Position numbers and translations under genes: made by a program. This document shows, in pieces, positions 1 to 19,968 of a stretch of 64,000 nucleotides of DNA. Origin of the DNA: Flavobacterium indicum GPTSA100-9 = DSM 17447 (GTDB taxonomy: Bacteria; Bacteroidota; Bacteroidia; Flavobacteriales; Flavobacteriaceae). The notes under the pieces are model-generated. The model worked only from the letters and a program-made list of their open reading frames with translations, did not search any database and had not been told where the DNA came from. The DNA is taken from the NCBI RefSeq assembly GCF_000455605.1, contig NC_017025.1, forward strand, positions 310,001 through 374,000, read 5' to 3'. Numbering within the stretch: position 1 is the stretch's first letter; every line of letters starts with the position of its first letter.

Positions 1-304
1 TTTCTGGAATTGAAAAAGTTGCATTTGTTTTTTCTTTAAGTTTTGTAAGCAAAAAATGAGCTTGTTTTTGAAACTCTAAAACGGAAATTCTTATTTCTTC
101 TTCACCGTTTTTTACAATTACTAAATCATTGTCATAACTGAACTCAAAAGTTCCATTAGTTTCATCACGAAGTACTTTGATTATTGGGAAAATCAAAGTT
201 TCTATTTTGTTTAAATTGCTGTCACCTGCAAAAAGTTGTTTGTCAGAAATGACCTTTAAAAGCGTATAAACTTCGCTCCATTCTCCTTTATTTCCTGTTA
301 TCAT
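1..304 (-). CDS. HpaII-like type II restriction endonuclease (N-terminal part, cut by window edge)
   Basis: The reading frame starts at 304 with MITGNKGEWSEVYTLLKV and stays open to the left edge (about 101 residues visible). The opening NKGEWSE...LL..I pattern and the following LNKIETLIFPIIKVLRDE segment are what I know from the HpaII restriction-endonuclease family, which cleaves unmethylated CCGG. The ATG overlaps the TGA of the upstream methyltransferase (ATGA), so the two are translationally coupled. The C-terminal part, including most of any catalytic core, lies outside the window, so activity cannot be judged. It belongs to cassette 14 of the array. Confidence 0.72.
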   Translation of the reverse strand, partial: MITGNKGEWSEVYTLLKVISDKQLFAGDSNLNKIETLIFPIIKVLRDETNGTFEFSYDNDLVIVKNGEEEIRISVLEFQKQAHFLLTKLKEKTNATFSIPE

Positions 305-1569
305 TTCTTAACTTCGATTAGCTTTAATATTTCATTTGCAGTTGCTTGAATAGCTGGAACGGCAACGGAGTTGCCGAATTGTTTATACGCAGATGCGTCA
401 GCAACTGGAATTATAAATTCGTCAGGAAATCCTTGTAATCTTGCCCATTCTCGTGGTGTCATTTTACGAATTCCTTCACGATTTACAGTTCCTTTTATAT
501 GAGTTGTTGGTGTAAAATCTGTAATTCTGTGGTCTAAAACCAAGTTTCTTTCTCTTCCCATCCCTCCACAAACTACAGCATTTGCAATTTCATTGTCAGA
601 AATAATTGCATATCCAAAACCGTTTCCCTTTCCTTCGTGTCGTGCTTTGTGATTAACCAAAGTTTGAACGTATTGAGTAGAAAGAAAATATTTTGTTGCT
701 GGTACTTCCTTTTCTTTGATGTCTGCAAAAGTTATTTTTTTGTCCAAAGGTTTTGGGTAATTAAATTCAGTAACATTTGTACTTGGATGAAATCCAACAA
801 TATAAATTCGTTCTCTATTTTGTGGAACGCCAAAATCTTTTGCGTTAATAATTTGCGGTTCAGGAATAAAATAACCTAAGTCGTTTCGTAAAACATTTAG
901 AATTGTGGCTAAAGTTTTTCCTCCGTTATGGTTTCGTAAACCTTTTACATTTTCAAGAAAAATTGCTTTTGGTTGTTTGCGTTTGATGATTTCGGCAACG
1001 TCAAAAAACAACGTTCCTCTTGTATCTTCAAATCCTCCACGTTTTCCAGCAATTGAAAATGCTTGACACGGAAAACCAGCACAAAGCAAGTCAAAACCGT
1101 CTGGAATAAATGCTTTTGTTTCTTCTTTTGTGATGTCTCCAAAAGGTCTTTCTCCAAAATTGGCTTTATAAGTTCGTTTGGCATCTTTGTCCCACTCACT
1201 TGTGAAAACGCATTTTCCGCCAAGGTTTTGCATTGCCAAACGAAAACCGCCAATTCCAGCAAAAAGGTCAATAAATTTAAATTTAGGATTTTCAACAGGT
1301 GGAAATGGAATGTCAAAAGTGTCAAAAATTCCGTATTGCAATGCTTCTTCCGCAACAATATTTGAAATTTCTTCTTTTGGGTATTCGTATTGTAAAATTT
1401 CTTTTGTGTATTTTACAGCATCTTTTTTGAAAAATTGAGAAACACCATTTTTGCTGTTGTGTAAAAAATGAGTAATAACCGCTTCCTTGTTGCTTTCAAG
1501 TTCAACAAGTTTTACTTTGTATTCTTTTTCAAATACTTTTTCAAGCGATATTTTCTCTTTTAATTTCAT
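301..1569 (-). CDS. DNA (cytosine-5)-methyltransferase of a type II R-M system
   Basis: A 422-aa C5-cytosine methyltransferase that protects host DNA from the coupled HpaII-like nuclease. Motif I (FIDLFAGIGGF) is at 99-109, motif IV with the catalytic Cys (AGFPCQAFS) at 164-172 with Cys168, motif VI (ENV) at 206-208, motif VIII (QNRERIYIVGF) at 250-260, a target-recognition region at about 280-345 with GGMGRERNLV, motif IX (PREWARLQGFP) near 372-382 and motif X (QFGNSVAVPAI) near 397-407. All key residues are present. An extra 95-residue N-terminal segment precedes motif I. Target CCGG is inferred only from the partner nuclease. It is the first gene of cassette 14. Its 120-bp leader back to the attC at 1690 is longer than in the other cassettes. 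Confidence 0.93.
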   Translation of the reverse strand: MKLKEKISLEKVFEKEYKVKLVELESNKEAVITHFLHNSKNGVSQFFKKDAVKYTKEILQYEYPKEEISNIVAEEALQYGIFDTFDIPFPPVENPKFKFIDLFAGIGGFRLAMQNLGGKCVFTSEWDKDAKRTYKANFGERPFGDITKEETKAFIPDGFDLLCAGFPCQAFSIAGKRGGFEDTRGTLFFDVAEIIKRKQPKAIFLENVKGLRNHNGGKTLATILNVLRNDLGYFIPEPQIINAKDFGVPQNRERIYIVGFHPSTNVTEFNYPKPLDKKITFADIKEKEVPATKYFLSTQYVQTLVNHKARHEGKGNGFGYAIISDNEIANAVVCGGMGRERNLVLDHRITDFTPTTHIKGTVNREGIRKMTPREWARLQGFPDEFIIPVADASAYKQFGNSVAVPAIQATANEILKLIEVKK

Positions 1570-1689
1570 TATGATTTTTCAAATTATTTTAAGATGCTAA
1601 AATACAAAAATTATTAGAAATGATTTTCGTCTATACCTGATTTTGTTGTCAGCTCAATGTTTGCGGTCAGTTCGGTTAGGGTGTCGCAC

Positions 1690-1813
1690 AACGTTCCGGC
1701 GCTTGGCGAGGTTGCGAACTTCGGAACCGATTATTTTCTATCAAAGATAAAATTTCTTGCGAGAAATAAACGTGAATTTACTACAAAATTCGCAATCTTG
1801 CCAAACGCCTGTT
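1690..1813 (-). repeat. attC-like site 1 (type A), attC of cassette 13
   Basis: Plus-strand ends are AACGTTCC and TGTT. Arms GGCGCTTGGCGAGGTTGCG (1698-1716) and CGCAATCTTGCCAAACGCC (1791-1809) pair over 19 bp with one mismatch and two G.T wobbles. The outer flank GTTGGCAGA (1811-1819) is the exact complement of TCTGCCAAC (2451-2459) at the other end of cassette 13. The loop contains TATCTTTG on the minus strand (1749-1742). Confidence 0.87.
1742..1749 (-). promoter_or_regulatory. Possible -7 box (TATCTTTG) inside attC site 1
   Basis: The minus strand reads TATCTTTG, an exact match to the Bacteroidota -7 consensus TAnnTTTG, 173 bp upstream of the methyltransferase start. I see no convincing TTG at the -33 distance, so this is a weak call that rests on the motif, its orientation and the lack of another candidate. 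Confidence 0.35.
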
Positions 1814-1831
1814 GGCAGATGGTTTTTATTT

Positions 1832-2419
1832 TTAATTAGTTCCGTATTTTATTCCGCAATTTTTAAAAAACTCTTTTAATAAGTCATATTTCTGAGTACA
1901 TTCTTCCCCTAAATTTATTTTATTATCATTTGTTCTATATCCTGAGCATTCAAAACAAATTTCAATAAAACCAATTATTTTATTTTCTGAGTTGTAAAAT
2001 AAAACAGCATTTCTTGGCATATAACAACCAGTTATTGATCTAATATTAGATTCACTTTCATAACCATAATTATAAATTATATCGGTAAGCTTATTAATTT
2101 GTTCAAAGTTTAGAACTTTAATTTCATCAAATTTATTTTCAATTATAGAATCTTTTTTTGCGACAAGTAAGTTTAGATATTTTTGTAAATCTTCACCTAC
2201 TATTCCTTCTTCTTTATTTTTATATGATACAATTTTAATTTGAGAAGTCAAATTATAAGGAAAGTTTGCAAGTCTTTTTTCTAACCTTATGTTTGAGTTT
2301 TTTGCGCAATTTAGTTTTTCAATTTCATTTTTATATTTTTTTTTCTTGGTTTGTGAAAAAGAAACATTACAGGAAAAAATAATAAATACGATTAATAATA
2401 TTCTGTTTATAAGTTTCAT
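1832..2419 (-). CDS. Secreted protein of unknown function (cassette 13)
   Basis: A 195-aa protein starting at MKLINRILL; a longer frame up to 2491 would run into the attC stem and is not used. Residues 1-22 form a signal peptide ending NVSFS-Q, followed by a Lys-rich stretch. The C-terminal half has a conserved-looking core with CYMPRNAVLFYN, then EICFECSGYR and KYDLLKEFF...GIKYG. I recognise this Cys-containing arrangement as a recurring Bacteroidota family without known function. The leader between cassette start and ATG is 39 nt. Likely periplasmic. The cysteines might bind a metal or form a disulfide, which is a guess. Confidence 0.8.
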   Translation of the reverse strand: MKLINRILLIVFIIFSCNVSFSQTKKKKYKNEIEKLNCAKNSNIRLEKRLANFPYNLTSQIKIVSYKNKEEGIVGEDLQKYLNLLVAKKDSIIENKFDEIKVLNFEQINKLTDIIYNYGYESESNIRSITGCYMPRNAVLFYNSENKIIGFIEICFECSGYRTNDNKINLGEECTQKYDLLKEFFKNCGIKYGTN

Positions 2420-2456
2420 ATTTTCTTTCAATTTCGGTTTTTCTAAAATCTCTGCC

Positions 2457-2580
2457 AACGTTCCCTCGCTTGGCGCAGTGGCGAAATCCAAAACGAGTAT
2501 TACAAATATAAATTAAAGTTTGATTAAACCACAAAAATTTCTGATAAAAACTAAACGAGCCATTGCGCCAAACGAGTGTT
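2457..2580 (-). repeat. attC-like site 2 (type B), attC of cassette 12
   Basis: AACGTTCC plus arm CTCGCTTGGCGCAGTGGC pairs with GCCATTGCGCCAAACGAG plus TGTT; the arm sequence differs from type A but the fold, the 5-versus-1-nt spacer asymmetry and the 124-bp length are kept. The outer flank GTTAGAGTAC matches the other end of cassette 12 (GTTATGGTGC as complement) at only 7 of 10 positions, the only poorly matched pair in the array. Confidence 0.82.
2503..2535 (-). promoter_or_regulatory. Bacteroidota-type promoter inside attC site 2
   Basis: On the minus strand TTTG (2535-2532) is followed after 21 bp by TATATTTG (2510-2503). Both elements and the spacing fit the Bacteroidota -33/-7 consensus. 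It points at the cassette 13 gene, whose ATG is 84 bp downstream. This is the best promoter match among the attC loops. Confidence 0.5.
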
Positions 2581-2650
2581 AGAGTACGTAAACCGACATA
2601 CAGTTAAGAACACAAAGTATTTCAATTCCAATTTTCCGATTCTATTTCGC

Positions 2651-2727
2651 ATTTCAGGCCTTAAGATTCTGAAAACGAAAAAATCACATTACCGAGAAAC
2701 GTGATCCGTTGGCTTGCTCAAAGTAAG
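2651..2727 (+). repeat. Direct repeat copy 1 in non-coding cassette 12
   Basis: About 77 bp repeated 144 bp downstream. The shared blocks are CCTTAAGATTCTGAAAACGA, ATTACCGAGAAACGTGAT and GTTGGCTTG, with small differences between them. Confidence 0.8.
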
Positions 2728-2794
2728 TTTTCGGTTTGTTTTTCCGCTTACAATTCGAAAGATTTTCGATTTCGTTATTCTACAACGTAAACAC

Positions 2795-2871
2795 ATTTCA
2801 AGCCTTAAGATTCTGAAAACGAAATACACTCATTACCGAGAAACGTGATAAGTTGGCTTGCGTAAAGTTGC
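2795..2871 (+). repeat. Direct repeat copy 2 in non-coding cassette 12
   Basis: Second copy of the 77-bp unit, in the same orientation. The differences from copy 1 are substitutions clustered after the GAAAACGA block and near the end of the unit. Confidence 0.8.
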
Positions 2872-2968
2872 GTTTCGAGATTCATTTCGGATATAAAATG
2901 TGTTGTGAAAAGGAGAAGTGAATTTAAAGAAATAGTGCTTTAAAAACGTGAATTGGTTTATGCACCAT

Positions 2969-3092
2969 AACGTTCCGGCGCTTGGCGAGGTTGCGAAATT
3001 CGGAATCGAGTATTTTCTGTTAAAGATAATATTTCTTGCGAAATATAAACGTGAATTTACTTCAAAATTCGCAATCTTGCCAAACGCCTGTT
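2969..3092 (-). repeat. attC-like site 3 (type A), attC of cassette 11
   Basis: Near-identical to site 1 in arms and loop. The flank GTTACCAGTA (3090-3099) is complementary to TACTGGTAAC at 7593-7602, 4.5 kb away, which defines one very long cassette. The loop -7-like motif is degenerate here (TATCTTTA on the minus strand). Confidence 0.87.
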
Positions 3093-3243
3093 ACCAGTAG
3101 TACTAATTACTATTTGAGGAATGTTTATTTCTTTCGATCTAATGTTTTTTTGTATATCCTTTTTAAGTAATTTGAAAACATATTTTGGTTTTAGTTAAGT
3201 TAATGAACAAAAATTTTATATTTTTTTTGAATAGTAAAAAAAC

Positions 3244-3280
3244 AAAAAGTAGTTATTGGCGAAGCCAATAACTACTTTTT
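3244..3280 (-). terminator. Rho-independent terminator after the T9SS hydrolase gene
   Basis: A perfect 17-bp stem (AAAAAGTAGTTATTGGC and its complement) around a GAA loop, rich in A/T at its base, 16 bp past the stop codon at 3296. The T-rich arm makes it usable in both directions. Confidence 0.85.
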
Positions 3281-3295
3281 TAAATTTTATTTTTT

Positions 3296-6200
3296 TTATT
3301 CTACAATTATTTGATGACTTTCTACTTGGTTATTGATATATATTTTCAGAACATATATCCCTTCATTTAAATTTCTAACATCAACGGAACCTCTATTGTT
3401 CATAAATTGTACAAAAGCTTTAGATTGCCCCATTAAATCAAAAAGTTCACCAGTAATAATATTACTTGAAGGACTATTGTCATTATCTCTTAAATCAATA
3501 TGAACAACATTATGTGTTGGGTTAGGAAAGACTTTATAATATTTGACAGTTGAATTGTTTGATTGACGAAATAAGTTTAGCCAATCTAATTCAACCATAG
3601 TTGTTCCACAAGCATTTGTTGCATAAGCAAAAACTTTATCAACACTATTTGGATTTGCACGAATAGTAAAGAAACTTCCTGGAGTATCGAAAATAGTAAC
3701 TCCATCTTTTATACCAATAAATTGAGTGCTTGTAATACCTTGTTGGTTAATAGTTAAATTTGGTTGATCACTTACCATTTCTAAAGTAGATTTTACAGGC
3801 TGTGGTTCAAAGTAATTATATTGTAGGTAAAAAGATGGTTTGCCTACCCAAACGTTTTTAGTTACAGTTTGACCATTTTGAAATGTTGCCGTAATTGTAC
3901 CTTGACCATTTGAAACTTGTGAAACTGTAATGGAATAATCTGTAGTTGAAACAATTTGTAAATTAGGAGAAACTGACCAAGTTGCAGAACTAGGTAATTT
4001 ACAAATATCTGAAAAAGTATATGTGACATTAGTATTACATATTAATTCAGCACCAACAAGTAAATTGTCTTGCATTGGAAAACTTGGAGCTTGTGGAATA
4101 CCATCTAATTCTTTAAAAAGCCAATCTATACCTTCTTTTGTAAATGAAGTATGTTCTGTATTACTTGCCGTGCCATAATAGCTATCGAATGGTGTTTGCT
4201 TGTTAGTAGGGCAAGTTAAATTGGTATTTAATGGATTTCCCCAATTTTGATTTGGATTTAAATGACCAATTGCCGAAAATGTTGGGATAAAAGAATGATT
4301 TTCAATATAATCTCTAGTTTCTTGTCTAACACCAGCATCACTCAACCCTTCAGATACGGCTTCTCTAATATATTTTGCAGTTCTAAAATAACCACCAGGA
4401 ACAACGTCCATACTTCCTTTAACACTATTGTTATTAACTTTCAAATTGTATCTTGGATGAGAAAAATCAATATACCAATGATTAAAACCAATATTAAAAG
4501 TGCTATTTTGTCCATCACCTTTAAAAACTGTTCCAGTTTGATATGAAGCTGGCATAAAGTTATCTTGTAAACGTAAAAGTGTAACGGTTGAGTTTTGAAA
4601 TGGCCACAAACCTCTTGCATAGCCTCTCATATACAAGAAAGTTTGCTGTTCTGAAGCATCTTTTTTACCTGTTAAAGAACCATTAACCATTGCAATCTTT
4701 CTAAAACTAGTATTGGAAACAGGATAACCATTTGAACCTGCTACACCGTTAGAATTTAGGTTATTGTAATAAGTTGTAAAAAAACTATTTCCATTTAAGT
4801 AACCTGTTTCTCTCGCATTTTGAAACTGACTTATAATTTGTTGTTTTCCTGCCACAGAGTTTAATTCTTCATAATATTGAATTTTAGCAGGTTCTTTTCC
4901 TAATCTATCCGCTAAAAACCAAATATTTGCTTGAGCACCTACTGGAATATTTGCTCCCAAATGTGGACTATCTACACTTATCCATAAACGAGCATTGTGT
5001 TTCCATTCTACTAATCCAGTTTCAGCAAATTTTTTCTCCATATAAGCAAGTGCAAAACGAGTAATTTGTCCGCCCATACTTGGGCCAACCAATACTAATT
5101 GTTGATTGCTACCCGCCAATGTTTGATTTGGTTTGACATAATTTTTTATAAATGAAACCAATGTCATTGCATTTCGCTCAATATAATCTGCACCACCATC
5201 AACAGTTACAGATTGCCCAGCTACATTGGTAGAGGTATAAGTAGGATTGTTTATTACTATTACATCATAGCCTTTTGTACGAAGTTCTGAAATTAAATTC
5301 TTTACTTGAGGTAAGCCAGTTGTTGAATTAATAGTATTATAATTCATTAAATCTTCTAGTGATTCGTGTTTTGTAGGATTAAAAACTCCATTATCACCAT
5401 CATCATTGTTTAGCACACAAGTTGGGTCTTGTTCACAATCACAATCTTGTACTTTTCGTTTGTCTTTAGGATCAAAACCATCTACTATAATTATGGGTTT
5501 TACCATTTGTTTTGCAGTATTGTTATAACCATAAAATATAGTATATTCCGTTTTTCCATATATAGGAGAATTTTCTGTATAACCTTGAAATGGTAAGGTA
5601 GATGTAAATGTTCCTTTGTCTTTTAGTAGTTCATAACAAGATGAATTAGTATTGTTTGGAGCTAAAGTTTGTAAATCGGAGTCGTATTTCACATAAATTT
5701 TACCATAGGTTTCCAGAGTGGTATTATCAGAATAGGTAATAGTGAATTTTAGTGATTTCATACCGCTATCTGTATAATTTACTGTTTTTGTTGGTACTAC
5801 AATTGTACTATTAGAAATAATAGTAACAGGACTACTACCGTCAATAAAATCAACAACTAATGTTTTTATAGTTGTTGTTGTATTATTCAGGATTAGATTA
5901 TTTTTAAAATTAAATTGAAATGCACTTCCAGTAATAAATTCTTTTAGAGGTGACATAATACTTATTTTTTTACCTATAAAGGAAGGTTGTCCCACTACAG
6001 CTACAAATTTTCCTGTACTTTGATTGAAAGTTACTCCTCCTGCACTAGGATTTTCTTCATTAAAATTGAGTTTATGAAAAGTAGTATTAATAATTCCTAC
6101 ATCAACAGAATTATTTGAAGTTGTAGTAGCAGTTCTGTTTTTTAGTTCAGTTAAACTAATAAACTTTGTTTGGTCTGATGCACGATATAATTCACTTAAT

Positions 6201-6439
6201 GCTTGTGCAAAGTGATTGCTGTTAGATATATTACTGTCGAAAGTGTTATAGTTTATTATGTTAGCAAATGTGGTTACTTTGTCTATCAATACACCCGAAG
6301 TTATTTGTGTGGTGTTTAAGTTGGAAAGCATAACAGGCCAATTAGGCAAATTTTCTGTTTCTTGAATGGTTTGATTTTCTTGTGCCACTATATGAGATAG
6401 TTGAATACAAAAAATAAATGTAAAAAGAATTTTTTTCAT
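3296..6439 (-). CDS. T9SS-exported alpha/beta-hydrolase (lipase-like), type A sorting domain
   Basis: A 1047-aa secreted protein. Residues 1-19 are a signal peptide (MKKILFTFIFCIQLSHIVAQ). The middle has an alpha/beta-hydrolase core: PIIIVDGFDPKDK near 305-320, then the nucleophile elbow LVGPSMGGQITRF (GxSxG) around 445-460 and SVDSPHLGANIP about 35 residues later, as in PGAP1/lipase-type hydrolases. A domain of beta-rich repeats follows (VTYTFSDIC..., NVWVGKPSF), and the last 80 residues are a Por-type (type A) sorting domain starting YYKVFPNPTHN, which directs export by the type IX system. The substrate is unknown. It is the largest gene of cassette 11; a terminator follows it, unusual for a cassette ORF. 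Confidence 0.85.
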   Translation of the reverse strand: MKKILFTFIFCIQLSHIVAQENQTIQETENLPNWPVMLSNLNTTQITSGVLIDKVTTFANIINYNTFDSNISNSNHFAQALSELYRASDQTKFISLTELKNRTATTTSNNSVDVGIINTTFHKLNFNEENPSAGGVTFNQSTGKFVAVVGQPSFIGKKISIMSPLKEFITGSAFQFNFKNNLILNNTTTTIKTLVVDFIDGSSPVTIISNSTIVVPTKTVNYTDSGMKSLKFTITYSDNTTLETYGKIYVKYDSDLQTLAPNNTNSSCYELLKDKGTFTSTLPFQGYTENSPIYGKTEYTIFYGYNNTAKQMVKPIIIVDGFDPKDKRKVQDCDCEQDPTCVLNNDDGDNGVFNPTKHESLEDLMNYNTINSTTGLPQVKNLISELRTKGYDVIVINNPTYTSTNVAGQSVTVDGGADYIERNAMTLVSFIKNYVKPNQTLAGSNQQLVLVGPSMGGQITRFALAYMEKKFAETGLVEWKHNARLWISVDSPHLGANIPVGAQANIWFLADRLGKEPAKIQYYEELNSVAGKQQIISQFQNARETGYLNGNSFFTTYYNNLNSNGVAGSNGYPVSNTSFRKIAMVNGSLTGKKDASEQQTFLYMRGYARGLWPFQNSTVTLLRLQDNFMPASYQTGTVFKGDGQNSTFNIGFNHWYIDFSHPRYNLKVNNNSVKGSMDVVPGGYFRTAKYIREAVSEGLSDAGVRQETRDYIENHSFIPTFSAIGHLNPNQNWGNPLNTNLTCPTNKQTPFDSYYGTASNTEHTSFTKEGIDWLFKELDGIPQAPSFPMQDNLLVGAELICNTNVTYTFSDICKLPSSATWSVSPNLQIVSTTDYSITVSQVSNGQGTITATFQNGQTVTKNVWVGKPSFYLQYNYFEPQPVKSTLEMVSDQPNLTINQQGITSTQFIGIKDGVTIFDTPGSFFTIRANPNSVDKVFAYATNACGTTMVELDWLNLFRQSNNSTVKYYKVFPNPTHNVVHIDLRDNDNSPSSNIITGELFDLMGQSKAFVQFMNNRGSVDVRNLNEGIYVLKIYINNQVESHQIIVE

Positions 6440-6494
6440 AATTTTGAATTGAGTTAGAATTTAGTTGTGAATAATTATTTTTAATTCGTTTTTG

Positions 6495-6518
6495 AAGAGG
6501 CAATTGCAGTTGCCTCTT
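6495..6518. terminator. Hairpin between cassette 11 genes, possible terminator
   Basis: AAGAGGCAA, 6-nt loop, TTGCCTCTT, followed by a T run on the plus strand. For the minus-strand genes here the downstream side is not T-rich, so termination in the gene direction is uncertain. Confidence 0.4.
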
Positions 6519-6528
6519 TTTTTATCTA

Positions 6529-6882
6529 TTATTTATTATATTCCCAGTTGCTAAATGAATTTAGAAAGGTAAGAGTTGCAATGATAAATATTGGAGGCAT
6601 CACAAGAGCAGCTGTTTTTCCCAAACTGAATTTATTGATTTTTATAATATCGTTTTTATTGATATTTAATTCTTTATTTAGATAAAAACCTTTGATATTT
6701 TCATCTGTTTCACTAATAAATTTAAAATGTCTAATAGTGCCTAAATTTTTAGTTTTGATAATGTATAATTTATTTTCTTTTAAAACGGAATAATCTTGTT
6801 TGTTGGTAGAATTTACTTTTGTTGTAATACAAGAATTTAGCATAAGTAAACAGAGCAAACAATATAAAATTGTATTTTTCAT
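6529..6882 (-). CDS. Small putative lipoprotein with C-terminal membrane helix
   Basis: 117 aa. The N-terminus MKNTILYCLLCLLMLNSC carries a lipobox (LNSC), so Cys18 is the likely lipidated residue. The middle (KLYIIKTKNLGTIRHFKFISETDENIKG) is beta-rich, and residues about 90-108 (TAALVMPPIFIIATLTFL) form a hydrophobic helix. I do not recognise the family. It lies 14 bp downstream of the 205-aa lipoprotein gene in cassette 11 and is probably cotranscribed with it. Confidence 0.65.
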   Translation of the reverse strand: MKNTILYCLLCLLMLNSCITTKVNSTNKQDYSVLKENKLYIIKTKNLGTIRHFKFISETDENIKGFYLNKELNINKNDIIKINKFSLGKTAALVMPPIFIIATLTFLNSFSNWEYNK

Positions 6883-6896
6883 AATATATTTAGTTT

Positions 6897-7514: not shown

Positions 7515-7599
7515 AGTTTGTTGTTTTTTATTGTTTTCAATTATAGTAATATTTTGTTATGAATTAATATTTATGCGCAATTTTGGAGGTATTACTGGT

Positions 7600-8135: not shown

Positions 8136-8160
8136 TTACAGTGTCTTTAACATAGCATAT

Positions 8161-8285: not shown

Positions 8286-8302
8286 ATGTGCTGCTTTTAT
8301 TA

Positions 8303-12526: not shown

Positions 12527-12556
12527 TTTTTGCAGATTTTTCGTAATATAACGGCT

Positions 12557-12680
12557 AACGTTCCGGCGCTTGGCGAGGTTGCGAGCTTCGGGACCGATTA
12601 TTTTCTGTTAAAGATAAAATTTCTTGCGAGAAATAAATGTGTATTTACTACAAAATTCGCAATCTTGCCAAACGCTTGTT
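12557..12680 (-). repeat. attC-like site 10 (type A), attC of cassette 4
   Basis: Type A with one arm substitution (AACGCTTGTT instead of AACGCCTGTT). The flank GTTACCAGCA (12678-12687) is complementary to TGCTGGTAAC (13223-13232), extending to 14 of 15. Confidence 0.87.
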
Positions 12681-12688
12681 ACCAGCAG

Positions 12689-13219
12689 TTATTTTTGTTT
12701 AGCTTTTCTTTTCTCTTTGATTATTTTTTTTCTTTCACTTACTGATTTTAAGTCAAAAATTGGTTTCCATTCAATATTAGCGTCGCTTTTTAACCATTCG
12801 TTATATTTTGCTTGAAACTTTTCAATTCCGTCACTCTTTATAAAATCTACATAATATTCTATGAAGTTCATATTCTTTTCGCAAAATGTAGCTAAACAAT
12901 TTTGTATTCCAGTGATTTGCGCATAAGGCATTCCTTCAATTCTGTCGGCTAAGATTATTGCAATTTCACCTTTAGTTAAGTTTCGGCCAACACATTCCGA
13001 CTTCACATTAGTTTCGGTTTTGTCAGTAAAAAATTCAGATAATTTCGGCAATAATTTCCAGCCATATCCAATAATTTTTTTTCCTTCGTTCGTATTGATG
13101 ATTTCTTTCGAGTTTTCGATTTTTGCAATTTCATTCAGCAATGAATCAATTTCTACATTGGTTTGTGATAAACCAAAGTTGAAAGTAAAAATTAATATTA
13201 TTAGATGCAGTTTTTTCAT
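12689..13219 (-). CDS. Secreted protein of unknown function (cassette 4)
   Basis: 176 aa with signal peptide MKKLHLIILIFTFNFGLSQ. The mature part is mainly helical: IDSLLNEIAKIEN, GWKLLPKLSEFFTD, a conserved-looking segment CVGRNLTKGEIAIILADRIEGMPYAQITG, and NCLATFCEKNMNFIEYYVDFI with paired cysteines. The basic tail is KKIIKEKRKAKQK. No recognised family. The start codon is just 12 nt from the cassette boundary, the shortest leader in the array. Confidence 0.75.
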   Translation of the reverse strand: MKKLHLIILIFTFNFGLSQTNVEIDSLLNEIAKIENSKEIINTNEGKKIIGYGWKLLPKLSEFFTDKTETNVKSECVGRNLTKGEIAIILADRIEGMPYAQITGIQNCLATFCEKNMNFIEYYVDFIKSDGIEKFQAKYNEWLKSDANIEWKPIFDLKSVSERKKIIKEKRKAKQK

Positions 13220-13229
13220 AATTGCTGGT

Positions 13230-13353
13230 AACGTTCCGGCGCTTGGCGAGGTTGCGAAGTTCGGAACCGATTATTTTCTGTTAAAGATAAAATTTCTTGC
13301 GAGAAATAAACGTGAATTTACTACAAAATTCGCAATCTTGCCAAACGCCTGTT
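13230..13353 (-). repeat. attC-like site 11 (type A), attC of cassette 3
   Basis: Type A arms and loop. The flank GTTAACTGC (13351-13359) is complementary to GCAGTTAAC (13800-13808). Confidence 0.87.
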
Positions 13354-13364
13354 AACTGCTGGCT

Positions 13365-13758
13365 TTATAATTCGGCTCTAATTTTTTCTTTTTCAAGCCA
13401 AATAATTAATTCCTTTCTGATGTCATTTTTTTCAGAGATAAGCATTTCGGTATTATTTGGTAGCGACCATTTATTTAAAGAATCAAAATAAATAAGTATG
13501 TCGAATTGACTCACTCCAGAAATTTCGAATTCAATTTCACATAATCTTTCTTTTTCAACGTAATAAATTGTTCCAGATCGTCCATCTGGCTTAATAATGA
13601 AGCCTTCTTTTTTTGAGAATTTCTGTGACTTTATTTTTTTTCCACCGTTGAACTTTCCATTCGTCTATATGCTTTTGTGGAATATGAGTTACATATAGAT
13701 TTTCTGAAATTTTTGTTTCAGTCCAACCTTCAGGAAGTTTATGATTTTCGTTATCCAT
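13365..13758 (-). pseudogene. Frameshifted cassette ORF, unknown function (cassette 3)
   Basis: The minus strand opens with MDNENHKLPEGWTETK and runs about 40 codons to YVTHIPQKHI. The reading then makes sense only in another frame (TNGKFNGGKKIKSQ, then KPDGRSGTIYYVEKERLCE and a terminal EKEKIRAEL) and ends in TAA at 13367-13365. In the first frame a stop comes 55 codons in. A one-base gain or two-base loss near 13650 (at CATATAGACGAATGG) would restore a protein of about 130 aa. Either the cassette gene is dead or there is a sequencing error. No family recognised; cytosolic. Confidence 0.6.
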
Positions 13759-13805
13759 ATTTAATAATTCGATTGGTTTAAGCGCAAAGATTGTAGCTTG
13801 CAGTT

Positions 13806-13929
13806 AACGGAACGGGTATTGCCGAAGGTGGGGATTAATTGCACTAAAGTTTAATAGAATTACTGCTAATGAACCTTGCACAAATGCTTAATCGAAACCG
13901 TTCAGCCCCGCTTTTGGCAATACCTTGTT
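13806..13929 (-). repeat. attC-like site 12 (type B), attC of cassette 2
   Basis: AACGGAAC plus GGGTATTGCCGAAGGTGGGG pairs with CCCCGCTTTTGGCAATACC, then TTGTT. This is the only site whose spacer is not GTTYY. The flank GTTAACGGCA (13927-13936) is complementary to TGCCGTTAAC (16634-16643). Confidence 0.84.
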
Positions 13930-13940
13930 AACGGCAGTGT

Positions 13941-16607
13941 TTATTGTTTAATCCAACTTGTAGCTTTCGTTGCATAAATAACCTTAGAACTCAATTCTTT
14001 TCCATCAAAGAAATTTATTCCCATAAGTTTAACTAACTCTTTCACTTTAATTTTTGGATTGGAATCTAAAGTCTTTTTTAGGATTTTGAATTTTTTATAC
14101 TCAAGACATTTATTTCTTAAAATACTTTTTGTTTCGTCCGGATCTTTTATTTGAATTAGTTTTTTTCCGAAATCAGTTAGTTTCTTAGTGTTGTCAATTA
14201 TTTCTAAAAAGAGAAGGTCTTTATTGAATTTACTATTAATAACACTTTCATCCAATTCAAAAAGAGGTAATATTTCTATCATTTCCTTGATTGAAGTCCT
14301 AGGTAAAAAAGTGTCTTTTTCAGATTCATTAAAATTTAGTGTACTTATTCCACCTCTTCCTTTTTTTGGTTCAATTAGTTTTTCTTTTATTGATAAATTA
14401 GATAAGTTAAACCAACTTATTAGGTTTTTTGCATAAGCGTCCCAAGTATTATCTTGAAACTCTTGTTTGAAAATTTGCTTTAAAATGATAATTATATCTT
14501 CTTTATCAATTTTTGACTTTTTGATTTTCCTCAATGCAATATATGGAGTGTAATTAGAAAACTTAGTACTAATGAATTCAACAAATCCTTCCTTACTGAT
14601 TTCAATGTCTTTTTCAGCATAATAATTTTCCTCATTTTTATTAATCAAGCCTATATTTCTCAGTTCAATCAAAATATTGTTTAAAGTATCTTGACTAATT
14701 CCTTTTGGATGTTTTTCTGTTAAAGAACTAATTGATTCACTTTTGTCATTTTCAAATAGTAGGAATACCTCCAAACACAAATTTACTCCTTGTCGCAATA
14801 AATAACTTTCTCCAATAATAGGTATTTCTCCCGTTACCAAATAATCTCTATAAATATCCCAATAAATATTATATATAGCTCCTGATCTAATAATTAATCT
14901 CTTATGAAGTAATGAGCTAATTATGTTTCCAGGAATTAGTTCCCCAACTTCAGTTTCTTCAAAAGAATTACCTTCATATGCTCTTTTTGCAATTAATTTC
15001 AAAGCTCTTAATTCATCACTTTGCAATCTTTCATCATCTTTTTTAAATAAGTCGAGAATATTTAGATTTGATTCTAACAACTCTTCTCTTTTTAAGCCAG
15101 ATTGAATTTGGTCATAAATATGAATACATAATTTTTTTGTTAACCAAGGAAGTCCTTGTGAACTTTCCTTAATTCTATCTTTTATACTTTTAGGAACAAT
15201 TCCTATAGAACCTTCTAATTGTTTTATAATACCGTCTATTTCTCTTTCTCCAAATTCACTTACTGTAAATTCTTTTGCTTGTTCTTTTGCTTGTTGCCAA
15301 ATATGATAGGATGAATCATCGCTTTGTATTAAAAAATCTGATTTCCAAGAAAAACCAATAATGAGATTTGGTTTCAAGTCTGTAACATCTGAAAGAAATT
15401 TATAAAATGTTTTGAAAAAATCTTTTTTCCTAAAAACATCTTCAAATTGGTCAAAAATTAGAACTAGATATTTTTTTTCAACTTCTAATAAATTCAAGAG
15501 TTCTTTTATACTTTCGGAAGAAAGAAGGTCAACATTTGATGTGAATTCCAAATCTTTTGTAAAGATGCTTTTGTGTATGAAATTTTGCTCATAAGCCTCT
15601 TTAATAATCTTATTAAAAGATAGTGCTACAAAATTATCTGAATTAGCACTTCTTGTATCTATGGCAACTGTAAAAAATCTATTTTTATAATGTTTGTTTT
15701 GGCTTCTACCTTTAATCTCTAAAACTAAGGAACTTTTTCCCCAACCAGATTTTCCATTTAAATAGAAAATATGCTTGTCAGTTTTTTTGTCTTCAATCTC
15801 TTTAAAAAAAGATAGAACATCTCGTCTGATTTCATCACGTCCAACGAAATGATTTCTTGAAGAAGATGCAGGAAGATAATCATACCAATTTTCACTTTCT
15901 TGAACCTCTGAAATAGATTCAATCTGAATATTTATATCTACTTTTTCTTTATAGTCAGCTTTATTGGAAGAAAGTTCAATGAATTCTAAGTTTTGAATCT
16001 CCAAAATGCTATTTTTTAAATTTTGAAGAACTTCTTTGTTTATTTGAACTTTGTTATCGTTTGCATTTATTACAATAAACTTTGTAGGAAGGGCATTAGA
16101 CTCATTTATTAAGTAGATTAAAAAATCTCCAAAATATGTTACTGCTAGAGTTCTTTTTGAAATTAGATAATTTTTTAATTCTGAAGTTGGCTCAAAAATC
16201 ATTTTGCCATCGGACAAAATTTTGATAATTTCAGATGGTTCAAAAAACGTTAGATTTTTGTATTCTGGTCTTGTCTTAATTTCGGAAAGTAAAGCTCCTG
16301 CTTGGCTTTCCAATTCTTGAGTTCTAAAGAAATATCCTTTGTCAATTTTTTTAAAGCCTACATTAAAAGAAAATTTAGACAATTCGTCTGACGAAACTTT
16401 TTCTTTTGCTTTACATTCTACATAAAGGGTTTCTTTATTGTGTTTATGTTCGGCAACAAGATCAATTTCCATTCCTGAATAGTTGATATTTCCTCTAATA
16501 TCATATTGGTGTAAAGCCAAAAGGTTTCGAATTAAACTTTCAAAGCAATTTCCTTTTGCTTTGTTTGAAGAACCTTCTTCTAGAATTATTTTTATTTCTG
16601 ACTTCAT
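13941..16607 (-). CDS. Mrr-like PD-(D/E)XK nuclease fused to a STAND-type NTPase, candidate antiphage protein
   Basis: 888 aa from MKSEIKIILE; the longer frame to 16727 crosses the attC and is rejected. Residues 15-130 are a restriction-endonuclease-like domain: GNCFESLIRNLL (E23), MEIDLVAEH (D49) and YVECKAK (E64, K66), a complete PD-(D/E)XK set of the Mrr type. A P-loop NTPase follows: VGRDEI near 255, Walker A NGKSGWGKSS (284-293), Walker B YLVLIFDQFED (380-390), the DQFE signature seen in nSTAND ATPases. The C-terminal third looks helical with winged-helix-like segments and shows no obvious TPRs. Nuclease-STAND fusions are known antiphage sensors (Avs-like). That this one is such a system is inference. 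Single gene of cassette 2, leader 35 nt. Confidence 0.82.
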   Translation of the reverse strand: MKSEIKIILEEGSSNKAKGNCFESLIRNLLALHQYDIRGNINYSGMEIDLVAEHKHNKETLYVECKAKEKVSSDELSKFSFNVGFKKIDKGYFFRTQELESQAGALLSEIKTRPEYKNLTFFEPSEIIKILSDGKMIFEPTSELKNYLISKRTLAVTYFGDFLIYLINESNALPTKFIVINANDNKVQINKEVLQNLKNSILEIQNLEFIELSSNKADYKEKVDINIQIESISEVQESENWYDYLPASSSRNHFVGRDEIRRDVLSFFKEIEDKKTDKHIFYLNGKSGWGKSSLVLEIKGRSQNKHYKNRFFTVAIDTRSANSDNFVALSFNKIIKEAYEQNFIHKSIFTKDLEFTSNVDLLSSESIKELLNLLEVEKKYLVLIFDQFEDVFRKKDFFKTFYKFLSDVTDLKPNLIIGFSWKSDFLIQSDDSSYHIWQQAKEQAKEFTVSEFGEREIDGIIKQLEGSIGIVPKSIKDRIKESSQGLPWLTKKLCIHIYDQIQSGLKREELLESNLNILDLFKKDDERLQSDELRALKLIAKRAYEGNSFEETEVGELIPGNIISSLLHKRLIIRSGAIYNIYWDIYRDYLVTGEIPIIGESYLLRQGVNLCLEVFLLFENDKSESISSLTEKHPKGISQDTLNNILIELRNIGLINKNEENYYAEKDIEISKEGFVEFISTKFSNYTPYIALRKIKKSKIDKEDIIIILKQIFKQEFQDNTWDAYAKNLISWFNLSNLSIKEKLIEPKKGRGGISTLNFNESEKDTFLPRTSIKEMIEILPLFELDESVINSKFNKDLLFLEIIDNTKKLTDFGKKLIQIKDPDETKSILRNKCLEYKKFKILKKTLDSNPKIKVKELVKLMGINFFDGKELSSKVIYATKATSWIKQ

Positions 16608-16640
16608 TATTAGGGTAGTCGTTTCTTTAACATTGCCGTT

Positions 16641-16764
16641 AACGTTTTGGCGCTTGGCGCAGTGGCGGATTTCGGAGCACAAAACTGTCAATACACCACA
16701 AAAGTTGATGCGAGGTAGAATGTTCAATTAACCACGTCACCCGCCATTGAGCCAAACGCCTGTT
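16641..16764 (-). repeat. attC-like site 13 (type B), attC of cassette 1
   Basis: AACGTTTT plus GGCGCTTGGCGCAGTGGCGG pairs with CCGCCATTGAGCCAAACGCC, then TGTT. Stem intermediate between types A and B; loop related to sites 4 and 6. The flank GTTACCTGC (16762-16770) is complementary to GCAGGTAAC (19841-19849), beside the recombinase. Confidence 0.86.
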
Positions 16765-16776
16765 ACCTGCTGGGCT

Positions 16777-17256
16777 TTATTTTGTTTTCATTTTTCCTAT
16801 CAGTCTTTGTTTGTTAAACCCTGCTATTTGAATAATTCTGTCTCGCTTGTTTCTTTCAACAAAGTTTGTGTACAAGTACCTCTTAATGTATTCTCTTAAA
16901 ATGCACTGAGCCAAATAATTGTCCTTAACATCTTCAAACAATTTTTCTAATTCTTTTGTGTCAATTTTATCATAAAACGTTTTAATAGCAAATGTTACTA
17001 TTTTGGATGCTGTTGTGTCTATGTTTACATTAACTCTGTCAAATAATTCATTTTGTCCTTTTGTTCCAACTGCAAACATTAGATTAGTCATACTGTCTAC
17101 ACAAATACGCCACGAAATAAATTGAAGTATATTTCTTACTGTCTTTTCTATTAGCTTAACATCTATATCGCCACGTTTACTTTTCTTTTCTTCTTCCTTT
17201 TTCTTTATATCCTCAACTATTGCTTCAATAAGTAATTCTTTGTCTTTTTCTAGCAT
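16777..17256 (-). CDS. Small helical partner of the metallophosphoesterase-STAND protein
   Basis: 159 aa, no signal peptide. The highly charged helical N-terminus (IEAIVEDIKKKEEEKKSKRGD, likely coiled coil) is followed by a helical domain (LQFISWRICVDSMTNLMFAVG, IVTFAIKTFYDKI, QCILREYIKRYLYTNFVERNKRDR). I do not recognise the family. It lies 36 bp downstream of the STAND gene in the same two-gene cassette, so it is probably cotranscribed and functionally linked, for instance as an effector, adaptor or regulator. That link is inferred from context only. Confidence 0.72.
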   Translation of the reverse strand: MLEKDKELLIEAIVEDIKKKEEEKKSKRGDIDVKLIEKTVRNILQFISWRICVDSMTNLMFAVGTKGQNELFDRVNVNIDTTASKIVTFAIKTFYDKIDTKELEKLFEDVKDNYLAQCILREYIKRYLYTNFVERNKRDRIIQIAGFNKQRLIGKMKTK

Positions 17257-17292
17257 ACCTGAATAGAAGCCAAGAAATCTAAAAATGGTGTT

Positions 17293-19809
17293 CTAGGCTG
17301 CTTCAACAAGCTTGATAAGTTTTTCCTTTTCAAAGTCACCACTTTGATTCTTTACAATCTGACCGATGATTTTAACTGTTCTAAAGGCTTGATTCATTTC
17401 GATTGCCTCAGAAGGTAATATACCGTCTTCATTATCGTTATCTGTATCAACTCTATTCCTTCTCTCAATGGCATCTTTTTTCTTGAGTTCCTTTTTTACT
17501 TCTTCTTTTGGGTTTCTATCTTCAATTATTTCATCTTTGATTTCATTGGTGAACTCAGTGATAAATTGCACAAACGTGTCATCCTTACTTAATGTTAGTG
17601 GATTAGCTTTCTCAAAAGGAATTTCACTAGTGAAAACGATACTATCTATAAGAATTTGTGCCTTTGAATGGTGAGAAAGAAAAATCAAAATATTGGCATT
17701 TATCTCTAAATGAATATTGTTACATAAGTTATATATAAGATCTTGATAGCTTTCTATGTCTGTTGAAATTTTTTGGGCTATTAGGAAGTAGTATATGTAT
17801 TTGTAAGAAAAAGTGTAGTATTCATCATCATATTTCAAAATATTAGAGTTGCAAAGTACACTAAGAATTTTATCACTTGTTAATGATTTGTGACGAAAAT
17901 ATTTAGCTGAATATTCTAAAATAAAACTGTCAAAATCTTCTCTATTAAAAGGGCTTTTCTTCTTGCCGTACATATAAAAAGCAAGTTCTTTGAGAATATT
18001 CAATAAACTCGTCAAAACTGAATCTTTGATTCCTTCTTTAATGAGACCTGCTTTAATTAAAACTAGGTAGATATTAGCATATGATGTTTGCGAAAAATTT
18101 TGAAGATTTTCATCAAGACTTTGTAAAAGAGTCAATATAAAAATTGGGTATGAAGGCATCAACCTATTGCCAATTAATGAATTGATTTCATTAAATCTTG
18201 ATTTTACAGTATTTAATATTACTTCTTCTTGAATCGTCAACTTATTTTCGCCAATCAAGAGCCATTGTTCAATTAATTCACTTCTCTTTTCGTGACCAAG
18301 CGGTAAAAGCTTATATTTAAAATAGTCCTTAAAGCTCGTAGCTTCCTCAGTTACATTTTTTGAACTGTAGGTGTTGTCAGATGTAACAATTATTACTTCA
18401 AAATTATTGTTGAATGATTCAACTAATCGTTTTTTATATTTTGAATTAAGACTTGATTTATGGAAGTTGTCAAGTAAAAGTACTTTCTTGTCAAGTTGGA
18501 AAAATAAATCTACATTTTCACTATCGTATTGCTCCTTTAAAACCTTTTTTACTAATTTCTTGACATCTGTTTCATTACAATATTTACCTCTCAAATAAAT
18601 TGGAGTAAGCCCCATTTCATAATACCTTTTGTAAAGAACATAGAGCAATGATGTTTTACCTGATTGGTCAGCCCCCTCAATTAATATATTTACATTGTTT
18701 TCATTTTTAACTTGTTTAATTAATTCAGAGGAGTTTGGATATTGAGCTACGTAATTTTCTTCTTCAAGCAATGGCTCTAGGTCTGGATATACGAATATAT
18801 CGGATAAAATTAATTTTGGTTTTTTTGAGTGTTTTAATGGGATGCTTAATTCTGTGATTTTTGTTTCAAATTCTTTATTTAAAATAAATTCTCGTTTAAC
18901 TTTTTCAATTATCCGATGTTTGTCCTCTGTCTCAACTAAATACGTTTCACCATCAAAATTGAAAGTTTTAATATTTATTGACTTGTCAGTTAGGTCTATT
19001 TCATAAAGACAAAACCCTGTTTCAGTAATAATATTTTTATCGAAAGCTTTGCCACCGCAAAAAACTACATTATTGTTTTTTTGAAGTACAGCCTTAGGAT
19101 TTCCTTTGTCGTGTTCGTGGCCATAAATTACAAGATTTGAGCTATTTATTAAATGCTCTTCAAATCGTTGTTTATTATTTCTTTTTGTATTTGCAGAAAG
19201 CCATTCTACAGGATGATGAAAAACAGAGATTACATATTCGCCATTTTCATTTTCAATAAATTTATTTTCTGGAATTATAAGTGACCCTTGTTTTTCGTTT
19301 ATTTCAGTAAGCCAACTTGTATTGTAACAGTGAAAAGTCACCTTAAAATCTAAATGCGGTCTGAATTCATATTTGTAAGATACTAAATTTCTATCCGATA
19401 ATTCTGTTACCTCATTTGTAAAATCCCAAAAATCAGATTGAACAGCCATAGCGTCTATGAAATAATCTTCTTCATCAATTATATCTGTTTTACAATCATT
19501 TAAAATTGATTTTCGAGTTTTCTTTTCATTGTCAAAACAACAATCGTGATTTCCCGGAACTGCAACGATTTTAATATTCAACAACTTCCATTTTTCTTTT
19601 AATCTATCTGTTAGTCCTACAACAAAGATTTTAGCTTTTTCAAATTCAGATTTCCTACCAAAATTTACTATGTCACCTGAGAAAACTAAATATAGGTGTG
19701 AAATTTGTTTAATGTCATATTCTACAGATTTAACAAGGTTTTCAATTCTATTTGTTAAGTCGTCTTCTTGAATATGTAAGTCGCTTAAATGTAATATTCC
19801 AATTTTCAT
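17293..19809 (-). CDS. Calcineurin-like metallophosphoesterase fused to a STAND/AAA-type ATPase, candidate defence protein
   Basis: 838 aa. Residues 1-235 are a metallophosphoesterase: LSDLH (8-12), SGDIVNFG (44-51), PGNHD (85-89), FHHP (197-200) and GHEHD (230-234), the full metal-ligand set. After a linker comes a P-loop ATPase: Walker A GADQSGKTS (379-387), Walker B KVLLLDNFH (442-450), then a helical region to the end with an acidic stretch (DTDNDNEDG). The order enzyme-ATPase-helical sensor is the STAND layout used by several phage-sensing systems. Substrate and trigger unknown. It is the cassette next to the recombinase, which in integrons is the newest position, and has a 39-nt leader. 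Confidence 0.8.
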   Translation of the reverse strand: MKIGILHLSDLHIQEDDLTNRIENLVKSVEYDIKQISHLYLVFSGDIVNFGRKSEFEKAKIFVVGLTDRLKEKWKLLNIKIVAVPGNHDCCFDNEKKTRKSILNDCKTDIIDEEDYFIDAMAVQSDFWDFTNEVTELSDRNLVSYKYEFRPHLDFKVTFHCYNTSWLTEINEKQGSLIIPENKFIENENGEYVISVFHHPVEWLSANTKRNNKQRFEEHLINSSNLVIYGHEHDKGNPKAVLQKNNNVVFCGGKAFDKNIITETGFCLYEIDLTDKSINIKTFNFDGETYLVETEDKHRIIEKVKREFILNKEFETKITELSIPLKHSKKPKLILSDIFVYPDLEPLLEEENYVAQYPNSSELIKQVKNENNVNILIEGADQSGKTSLLYVLYKRYYEMGLTPIYLRGKYCNETDVKKLVKKVLKEQYDSENVDLFFQLDKKVLLLDNFHKSSLNSKYKKRLVESFNNNFEVIIVTSDNTYSSKNVTEEATSFKDYFKYKLLPLGHEKRSELIEQWLLIGENKLTIQEEVILNTVKSRFNEINSLIGNRLMPSYPIFILTLLQSLDENLQNFSQTSYANIYLVLIKAGLIKEGIKDSVLTSLLNILKELAFYMYGKKKSPFNREDFDSFILEYSAKYFRHKSLTSDKILSVLCNSNILKYDDEYYTFSYKYIYYFLIAQKISTDIESYQDLIYNLCNNIHLEINANILIFLSHHSKAQILIDSIVFTSEIPFEKANPLTLSKDDTFVQFITEFTNEIKDEIIEDRNPKEEVKKELKKKDAIERRNRVDTDNDNEDGILPSEAIEMNQAFRTVKIIGQIVKNQSGDFEKEKLIKLVEAA

Positions 19810-19846
19810 ATTTTATTGTTTCTGTCGGTTTTTTAGCCTTGCAGGT

Positions 19847-19941
19847 AACTAGTTTATATGCGAAATAAATCTACACCTTTTATTCCATTTTGGCAAGATA
19901 GGCGAAGTTTTTTATGGTTTTTATTGCGCATAGTTTTAGTT
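19847..19941 (-). other. attI-like terminal site between the array and the recombinase gene
   Basis: AACTAGTTTATATGCG (19847-19862) and CGCATAGTTTTAGTT (19927-19941) form an imperfect inverted repeat about 95 bp long, unlike any attC in sequence. The last cassette end (GCAGGTAAC) joins exactly at its AAC, so the exchange point G|TT is shared. Inside, TTTTGGCAAGATAGGCGAAG (19888-19907) resembles a type A attC left arm. It lies 27 bp from the recombinase stop codon. Position and structure suggest a primary insertion site; function not shown. Confidence 0.6.
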
Positions 19942-19968
19942 GTTCTTTTTCAAAAATACAATAAAATC

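What the first reader, a model, noticed from the sequence alone, without database searches (positions are those of the whole stretch)
1..19942. A large integron-like cassette array in a flavobacterium, apparently without an IntI-type integrase
Thirteen attC-like elements of 123-125 bp alternate with 13 complete gene units plus a partial one. Nearly all ORFs point the same way, and each unit has its own complementary ends. Every structural hallmark of integron cassettes is present (single ORF plus recombination site, TT at the cassette start, G|TT junction, R-box pairing across the cassette), but the only recombinase in the window is Xer-like. This may be a parallel cassette system in Bacteroidota rather than a standard integron.
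Basis: partly seen in the sequence, partly recalled or inferred. Interest (0 to 1): 0.95.

Follow-up and report, generated by a model that had tools for sequence, protein, structure and literature searches.

The report
Integron with a Xer-like integrase
This flavobacterium stores genes as exactly bounded cassettes, identical copies of which sit at several places in its chromosome, and they are likely moved by a Xer-like recombinase that lacks the protein piece that defines integron integrases, so cassette capture may be older and commoner than current search tools show.

Summary
Thirteen attC-like sites lie in the window and five more below it. A second array of 31 sites and three lone cassettes lie elsewhere in the complete 2.99 Mb chromosome. 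Twelve of 13 units in the window have complementary ends. Six cassettes occur in 2-5 identical copies in different neighbourhoods, with breakpoints at AAC|G: they move as units. The site hairpin covaries (94.8% of cells paired; 560 double changes, 186 in shuffles).
TIGR02249 finds no canonical IntI over its cut-off in 149 family genomes. A Xer-like recombinase with all catalytic residues (19969-21006) sits beside an attI-type junction. It lacks 42 residues that 119 of 120 IntI homologues have. Arrays of one polarity flank its relatives in 45 of 81 and 35 of 40 fetched loci (seven shared). In the tree they are sister to IntI.
Six attI-like sites, one beside the recombinase, carry cassettes; two further genomes also have remote ones.
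Best reading: an integron variant with an I2-less integrase, common in Flavobacteriaceae and seen in other Bacteroidota. Recombination itself is untested.

The parts
19969..21006 (-). Xer-like tyrosine recombinase, 345 aa, likely cassette integrase; catalytic R204, K229, H293, R296, H319, Y328; no IntI-specific insert; extra N-terminal domain, about residues 1-60
19849..19968 (-). attI-type region; core TTCGCATATAAACTA|GTT at 19847-19864, crossover taken as G|TT, first cassette starts here; related sequence at five remote places
16641..19848 (-). cassette 1 (attI-proximal; unit borders here and below to within 2 nt): attC 16641-16764, genes 16777-17256 and 17293-19809 (metallophosphatase-STAND NTPase, PADLOC PDC-S60)
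13806..16640 (-). cassette 2: attC 13806-13929, gene 13941 to about 16607 (Mrr nuclease-STAND NTPase)
13230..13805 (-). cassette 3: attC 13230-13353, 456-bp body without a long intact ORF; identical body present 4 more times in array 2
12557..13229 (-). cassette 4: attC 12557-12680, gene 12689-13219; identical body twice in array 2
11563..12556 (-). cassette 5: attC 11563-11685, gene 11684-12526
11048..11562 (-). cassette 6: attC 11048-11171, gene 11183-11521; identical body twice in array 2
9902..11047 (-). cassette 7: attC 9902-10025, gene 10038-11036
9043..9901 (-). cassette 8: attC 9043-9166, gene 9190-9852 (endonuclease/exonuclease/phosphatase family)
8161..9042 (-). cassette 9: attC 8161-8285, gene 8303-9013; identical body once in array 2
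7600..8160 (-). cassette 10: attC 7600-7723, gene 7722-8135
2969..7599 (-). cassette 11: attC 2969-3092, three ORFs 3296-6439 (C-terminal sorting domain), 6529-6882, 6897-7514
2457..2968 (-). unit 12: attC 2457-2580, ORF-less body with an internal 84-bp repeat; the only unit in the window whose ends do not match
1690..2456 (-). cassette 13: attC 1690-1813, gene 1832 to about 2419
1..1689 (-). partial cassette: C5 cytosine methyltransferase 301-1569 plus sequence running out of the window; the cassette ends at the attC at G000 309077-309201

Best explanation
The window holds an integron-type cassette array whose attC-type sites are predicted to fold into hairpins and whose cassettes are likely excised and reinserted by the adjacent Xer-like tyrosine recombinase, which lacks the domain that defines integron integrases. 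Shown by sequence: the mobile unit runs from TT at the gene's 5' side to the end of the attC on its 3' side, identical copies of it lie in different neighbourhoods, and breakpoints fall in AAC|G. Shown: cassettes abut an attI-type core (TTCGCATATAAACTA|GTT) beside the recombinase and related cores at five remote places. Inferred: the recombinase cleaves one strand of the folded attC (probably the bottom strand, judged from conserved G.T wobbles) and joins it to double-stranded attI; it serves the remote attI-like sites in trans. Inferred: another part of the protein, perhaps the extra N-terminal domain, does the job of the I2 helix; relatives with the array upstream lack that domain, which speaks against it as the general answer.
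For: Precise mobility: 17 copies of 6 cassettes with 100% identical bodies. In all 19 pairs identity also runs through the 3' attC to the AAC at its outer edge; on the other side it ends within 7 nt of the TAA of the neighbouring attC in 14 pairs and 25-29 nt into that attC in 5. Units of two other genomes (L074, L077) are copied with the same borders on both sides, L076 on one side. Hairpin: 15 of 24 pairs with compensatory changes in 12 sites; 93 sites: 94.8% of cells paired, 560 double changes against 186.2 in shuffles, slid controls 34-51%. attI junction: own cassette end (8 nt or more) within 450 bp of the recombinase stop in 44 of 49 distinct loci, control 8 of 2318 pairs. Co-occurrence: 98 of 129 site-bearing against 4 of 20 site-less genomes carry the recombinase, nominal Fisher p 2e-6, relatedness not corrected. 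No IntI over cut-off; positive control 71. Insert absent: 29-30 residues in the Bacteroidota rows against 71 in 119 of 120 IntI homologues. Remote attI-like sites.
Against: No recombination was observed; the link to this recombinase is by position and co-occurrence. 31 of 129 site-bearing genomes gave no array-type recombinase at E 1e-60, so cassettes persist without it or other enzymes act. Five of 40 loci had no site (L039, L040, L043, L051, L075; three of them, L039, L040 and L075, with 11 kb or more on the expected side). Of 36 no-hit loci among the 81, 24 end within about 2 kb downstream of the gene, but seven Bacteroidota loci do not (L109, L118, L145, L147, L151, L152, L156); L152 later gave one weak upstream site. 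The bottom strand is the more stable one in 76 of 91 sites, not in 15. Five of 49 loci lack the junction within 450 bp, and the core motif is missing in 6 of 36. One protein over the TIGR02249 cut-off, L162, has only 49 residues at the insert, so the insert varies even in IntI. The sixth attI-like place has matching ends but no attC that the model finds. R2 was built mostly from sites found beside these recombinases.
Confidence: 0.87

Rival explanations
1. CALIN-like remnant: the arrays were built by a canonical IntI that has been lost or sits on an unsequenced plasmid; the Xer-like recombinase is a neighbour without a role.
For: Array 2 and three lone cassettes have no recombinase near; 31 of 129 site-bearing genomes lack the recombinase at E 1e-60; clusters of attC without integrase are known (passages of PMC9024848).
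Against: 0 of 149 family genomes hold a TIGR02249 match over the cut-off, yet 129 of 149 hold sites. The recombinase lies at the array's attI end with one polarity in 45 of 81 and 35 of 40 loci. Cassette copies are identical, so movement is recent.
Confidence: 0.06
2. The host XerC/XerD pair, or another tyrosine recombinase of the genome, moves the cassettes, with attI as a dif-like site.
For: The genome holds five other tyrosine recombinase matches, and a phage (CTXphi) that integrates through XerC is described (passage of PMC7790495).
Against: R2 finds nothing at E 0.01 around the other five matches (loci of about 3.5 kb); the attI junction lies beside relatives of this recombinase in 44 of 49 loci. 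I did not locate dif in this genome, so the dif comparison is untested.
Confidence: 0.05
3. Homologous recombination between near-identical 124-bp repeats shuffles the units; the repeats are intergenic hairpins such as terminators.
For: Eight of the 13 sites of the window are 79-nt close copies or partial copies of each other, so some borders cannot be told apart (5 of 19 pairs).
Against: Breakpoints recur at AAC|G where the flanking sites differ right after it; end complementarity across units, attI-type cores at the starts of arrays and lone cassettes and covariation with little sequence conservation are not expected of terminators.
Confidence: 0.02

Closest known systems
Sedentary chromosomal integron with IntI (as in Vibrio; IntI4 structure 2A3V)
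   Different: Integrase lacks about 42 residues with the IntI-specific domain; scores 211.8 against the 265 cut-off of TIGR02249; integrase gene points the same way as the cassettes; six attI-like sites per chromosome
CALIN (cluster of attC sites lacking an integron integrase)
   Same: Array 2 and the lone cassettes have no recombinase near
   Different: They start at an attI-like core, and array 2 shares identical cassettes with array 1, so they look like remote platforms in use rather than debris
XerA/XerC/XerD resolvases
   Same: Over the NCBIfam cut-off for NF040815 (recomb_XerA_Arch, 240.8 against 220); best PDB sequence match XerA 5HXY
   Different: In the tree the array-associated proteins group with IntI apart from XerA and XerC/D (100/98); they sit beside cassette arrays; most have an extra N-terminal domain
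Complete integron of Salinibacter ruber (Bacteroidetes), from IntegronFinder 2.0
   Same: A phylum-level relative with an integron (passage of PMC9024848)
   Different: Found by a program that looks for IntI profiles; I expect the present recombinase to be missed by them (not run)

Membership tests
Integron (canonical, IntI-based) | Array of cassettes, each a gene plus an attC site, in one orientation | tested here: met
   13 sites in the window and 18 in array 1; 43 of 45 longest ORFs in one direction
Integron (canonical, IntI-based) | attC folds into an imperfect hairpin with AAC/GTT triplets | tested here: met
   Covariation in 93 sites; each letter of AAC and GTT in 92 or 93 of 93
Integron (canonical, IntI-based) | Cassette ends complementary in the circular form | tested here: met
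   12 of 13 units of the window
Integron (canonical, IntI-based) | attI beside the integrase gene as insertion point | tested here: met
   44 of 49 loci, control 8 of 2318; core motif in 30 of 36
Integron (canonical, IntI-based) | Integrase with the IntI-specific additional domain (patch III, I2 helix) | tested here: not met
   29-30 residues where 119 of 120 IntI homologues have 71 and one has 124; 21 against 64 in 2A3V. L162, over the IntI cut-off, has 49
Integron (canonical, IntI-based) | Integrase over the curated integron-integrase cut-offs (TIGR02249, NF011946) | tested here: not met
   211.8 against 265 and 139.7 against 435
Integron (canonical, IntI-based) | Single-strand attC x attI recombination by the integrase | not testable with these tools
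   Needs an assay
Integron (canonical, IntI-based) | Extrahelical bases in attC that set strand choice | tested here: inconclusive
   A 1x1 mismatch (model positions 14/117), a 4-nt one-sided bulge and two conserved G.T wobbles are seen; no clear bulged base
Integron (canonical, IntI-based) | Cassette promoter Pc | not tested
   Not scanned
CALIN | attC cluster without a nearby integron integrase | tested here: met
   Array 2 by IntI and by recombinase search
Xer tyrosine recombinase | Catalytic R-K-H-R-H-Y residues | tested here: met
   79 of 79 rows for R and K, 77 of 79 for H, R, H, Y with the other 2 gapped
Xer tyrosine recombinase | Acts at dif in chromosome dimer resolution | not tested
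   dif was not located; other Xer-like proteins exist in the genome

The most novel reading that the evidence does not exclude
A second great class of integrons exists, common in Flavobacteriaceae and present in other Bacteroidota: its integrase is the I2-less sister of IntI, so folded-DNA cassette capture came before the I2 helix; and one integrase serves several attI platforms scattered over the chromosome, a distributed integron.
Probability: 0.62. Interest if true: 0.96.

Novelty: new variant of a known kind. Interest (0 to 1): 0.93.

Why it matters
A published pipeline recognises integrases by the IntI-specific domain (passage of PMC9668308), and one large survey names a single complete integron in Bacteroidetes proper (passage of PMC9024848). 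Here 129 of 149 genomes of one Bacteroidota family hold sites of this kind. If the recombinase is the integrase, a large cassette reservoir, in this genome with restriction and STAND-NTPase genes among its cargo, has been overlooked. It also tests the idea that IntI gained single-strand recombination by acquiring the I2 helix (abstract and passages of PMC7790495): here a sister lineage without that helix sits beside attC-type arrays.

Tried and rejected
Rfam: no attC-type family rang in the window at E 1 or in three loci at gathering score; the weak MIR9481 match (E 0.23) is chance.

Canonical IntI by TIGR02249: rejected. The E 1e-60 limit also silenced the 14 control genomes, so I ran three genomes with canonical IntI as positive control.

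Trees: L161, L164, L158 and L151 were left out as long branches; in the first tree (quick) L161 and L164, which have no array found, joined IntI with support 83, and L150 joins IntI on a long branch. So sisterhood to IntI rests on a sample drawn with this recombinase as query.

A seventh unit shared by the two arrays is only partly alike (99.8% over 1229 of 1697 bp) and was not counted. In one search the attI-proximal junction was given wrong coordinates and shows no match; one search has it right.

Full report
What is there. The window is G000:C1:310001-374000 of a complete 2,993,089-bp chromosome. Thirteen attC-like sites of 123-125 bp (AAC to GTT) lie at 1690-16764, all in one orientation. 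Read on the minus strand, each unit starts TT, carries a gene pointing the same way (except the ORF-less units), and ends with the attC. Over both arrays the longest ORF is on that strand in 43 of 45 units (3 of the array-2 units were dropped for want of a site end), and for the 39 with an ORF of 80 aa or more the median distance from cassette start to ATG is 39 bp and from stop to attC 15 bp. The array goes on below the window (sites at G000 304295, 306112, 306682, 308326, 309077) and makes 18 sites in all.

Cassette hallmark. In an integron the two ends of one cassette, not the two ends of one linear attC, are complementary (recalled). That is what is seen: cassette mates match for 8-10 nt, GTT included, in 11 of 13 as first scored and 12 of 13 after the site at 13806 is placed correctly, against a mean of 4.0 for all other pairs; 0 of 10,000 permutations reach the total. 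The failing unit, 2581-2968, has no ORF. Of the five units between the sites below the window two do not match (the two that border the degenerate site 306112).

Folded site. In 12 sites of the window 15 of 24 pairs change on both sides and stay paired in at least one site (site 13806 was left out because it aligned poorly). In 93 sites from this and other genomes 94.8% of cells pair, with 560 double changes against 186.2 in shuffles and 34-51% paired when slid; 2 of the 93 rows are opposite-strand readings of window sites, and the alignment was fitted to the model, which favours its structure. Conserved features: A-A-C and G-T-T, a T-A pair at positions 15/116, a mismatch at 14/117, a one-sided 4-nt bulge next to AACG, and G.T wobbles at 5/122 (87 of 93) and 23/108 (85 of 93). 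A G.T on one strand is a C.A mismatch on the other; the bottom strand folds more stably in 76 of 91 sites and less in 15 (arms only; the 2 opposite-strand rows were dropped).

Cassettes move. A second array of 31 sites lies at G000 1082167-1122353 and three lone sites at 1195557, 1332579 and 1878427 (three further rows at E 0.16-0.96 are taken for chance). Six cassettes occur in 17 copies with identical bodies over the two arrays, the 456-bp one five times. In all 19 pairs identity also covers the attC at the gene's 3' side, up to the AAC at its outer edge. On the other side it ends within 7 nt of the TAA of the next site in 14 pairs, and 25-29 nt into that site in 5, where the two sites are themselves alike. 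So the mobile unit and the crossover are those of an integron. Of 22 loci of other genomes compared, 15 repeat pairs of 97% or more were listed in six: units in L074 and L077 are bounded at GTT or AAC on both sides, L076 on one side, and others (such as L061) are not. The array of the other genome of the genus (L041) shares no cassette ORF with the 44 tested at E 1e-8, while the methyltransferase cassette cut by the window's edge has a relative of 71% identity over 2387 columns in another genus (L061).

Association in other genomes. Eighty named relatives plus a Chryseobacterium plasmid were scanned with model R2: 185 rows, of which 17 are opposite-strand readings of the same sites, leave 168 sites in 45 of 81 loci; 147 lie downstream on the minus strand and 21 upstream on the plus strand, none otherwise. 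Both layouts have the same polarity seen from the recombinase. Of the 36 loci without sites, 24 end within about 2 kb downstream of the gene; of the other 12, five come from other phyla and four of these look like canonical IntI or pieces of it by their sequence. In 40 loci from whole genomes, 276 rows (7 opposite-strand) leave 269 sites in 35 loci, none with wrong polarity; seven of these 40 are contigs already among the 81, so 75 of 114 distinct loci have sites. Control loci (206 kb: other tyrosine recombinases, plain chromosome, canonical IntI neighbourhoods, four relatives) gave one match under 0.01, in relative L152.

attI. The first cassette's end is found again (8 nt or more) within 450 bp of the recombinase stop in 44 of 49 distinct loci, against 8 of 2318 pairs with other loci's ends (exceptions L125, L108, L129, L099, L049). 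In 30 of 36 sequences the junction is preceded by an ATATAAAC-A-like core. In this genome the core TTCGCATATAAACTA|GTT with up to 3 mismatches occurs at 11 places (5 in the reversed-pattern control). Six have a cassette end behind them: beside the recombinase, at the start of array 2, at the three lone cassettes, and at 1312165, where a unit with matching ends but no model-detected attC follows. The 45 bp upstream of these six agree at 19-40 positions, shuffled mean 12.3, maximum 23. The other five places, with 3 mismatches, were not examined. Only one of the six has a recombinase near. G113 has four matches: two perfect, each followed by an array, and two with 3 mismatches without sites. G087 has six: three followed by sites, three not. 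I infer that one integrase serves several attI platforms.

Distribution and descent. 129 of 149 genomes of the family (own included; at most 23 candidates scored in each) hold R2 matches at E 0.01, six of them only at 1e-4 to 1e-6; TIGR02249 gives 0 of 149 over cut-off. The recombinase (profile search, E 1e-60, broken copies included; 14 genomes with only weaker, probably XerC/D-type matches counted as lacking it) is in 98 of 129 with sites and 4 of 20 without; with the single-sequence search the counts are 91 of 129 and 3 of 20. In the tree IntI form a clade (100/100), the array-associated Bacteroidota proteins another (97/86, with four rows inside for which one search found no array), and both together are apart from XerA and XerC/D (100/98); L150 is an exception on a long branch. 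The sample was drawn with this recombinase as query.

Literature. Searches of the open-access library listed, by title and start of abstract, no paper on such a system; preprints and most subscription papers are not held, so this is not proof of novelty. I read passages only of PMC9024848, PMC9668308, PMC7790495, PMC2426708 and PMC8352920; the last names 11 taxon models, none of Bacteroidetes.

Noticed in passing
G000:C1 1123131, 1196304, 1312165, 1331847, 1877413: Remote attI-like sites with related upstream sequence, each followed by a cassette or array and none near a recombinase homologue; G113 and G087 also have such remote sites.
   Followed up: yes
L166 20001-37075 (plasmid of Chryseobacterium sp. 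SNU WT5): A plasmid carries a 54% identical recombinase with six attC-type sites downstream, among them an IS110 transposase, other transposases and a group II intron: a mobile form of the system.
   Followed up: partly
L137-L142, L158: In Sphingobacterium, Empedobacter, Parapedobacter, Avrilella and one MAG the recombinase is shorter (271-283 aa, without the N-terminal extension) and the array lies upstream, the classical divergent layout; the proteins of L141 and L142, from two families, are identical.
   Followed up: partly
window 20827-21006 (residues 1-60 of the recombinase): Extra N-terminal domain with a W-S motif; weak resemblance to HARP and DUF5710.
   Followed up: partly
window 16777-19809 and 13941-16607: Cassette cargo resembling candidate defence genes (PADLOC PDC-S60; Mrr nuclease with STAND NTPase, no PADLOC match); a C5 methyltransferase cassette at 301-1569.
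   Followed up: no
window 21065-21198 and 22384-22488: Two Flavo-1 RNA matches near the recombinase.
   Followed up: no
window 2650-2877: Two copies (85%) of an 84-bp repeat inside the ORF-less unit with unmatched ends.
   Followed up: no
G100:C1: Ten recombinase matches in one genome, eight of them at 196-197 bits, so likely a multiplied element with a Xer-type recombinase.
   Followed up: no
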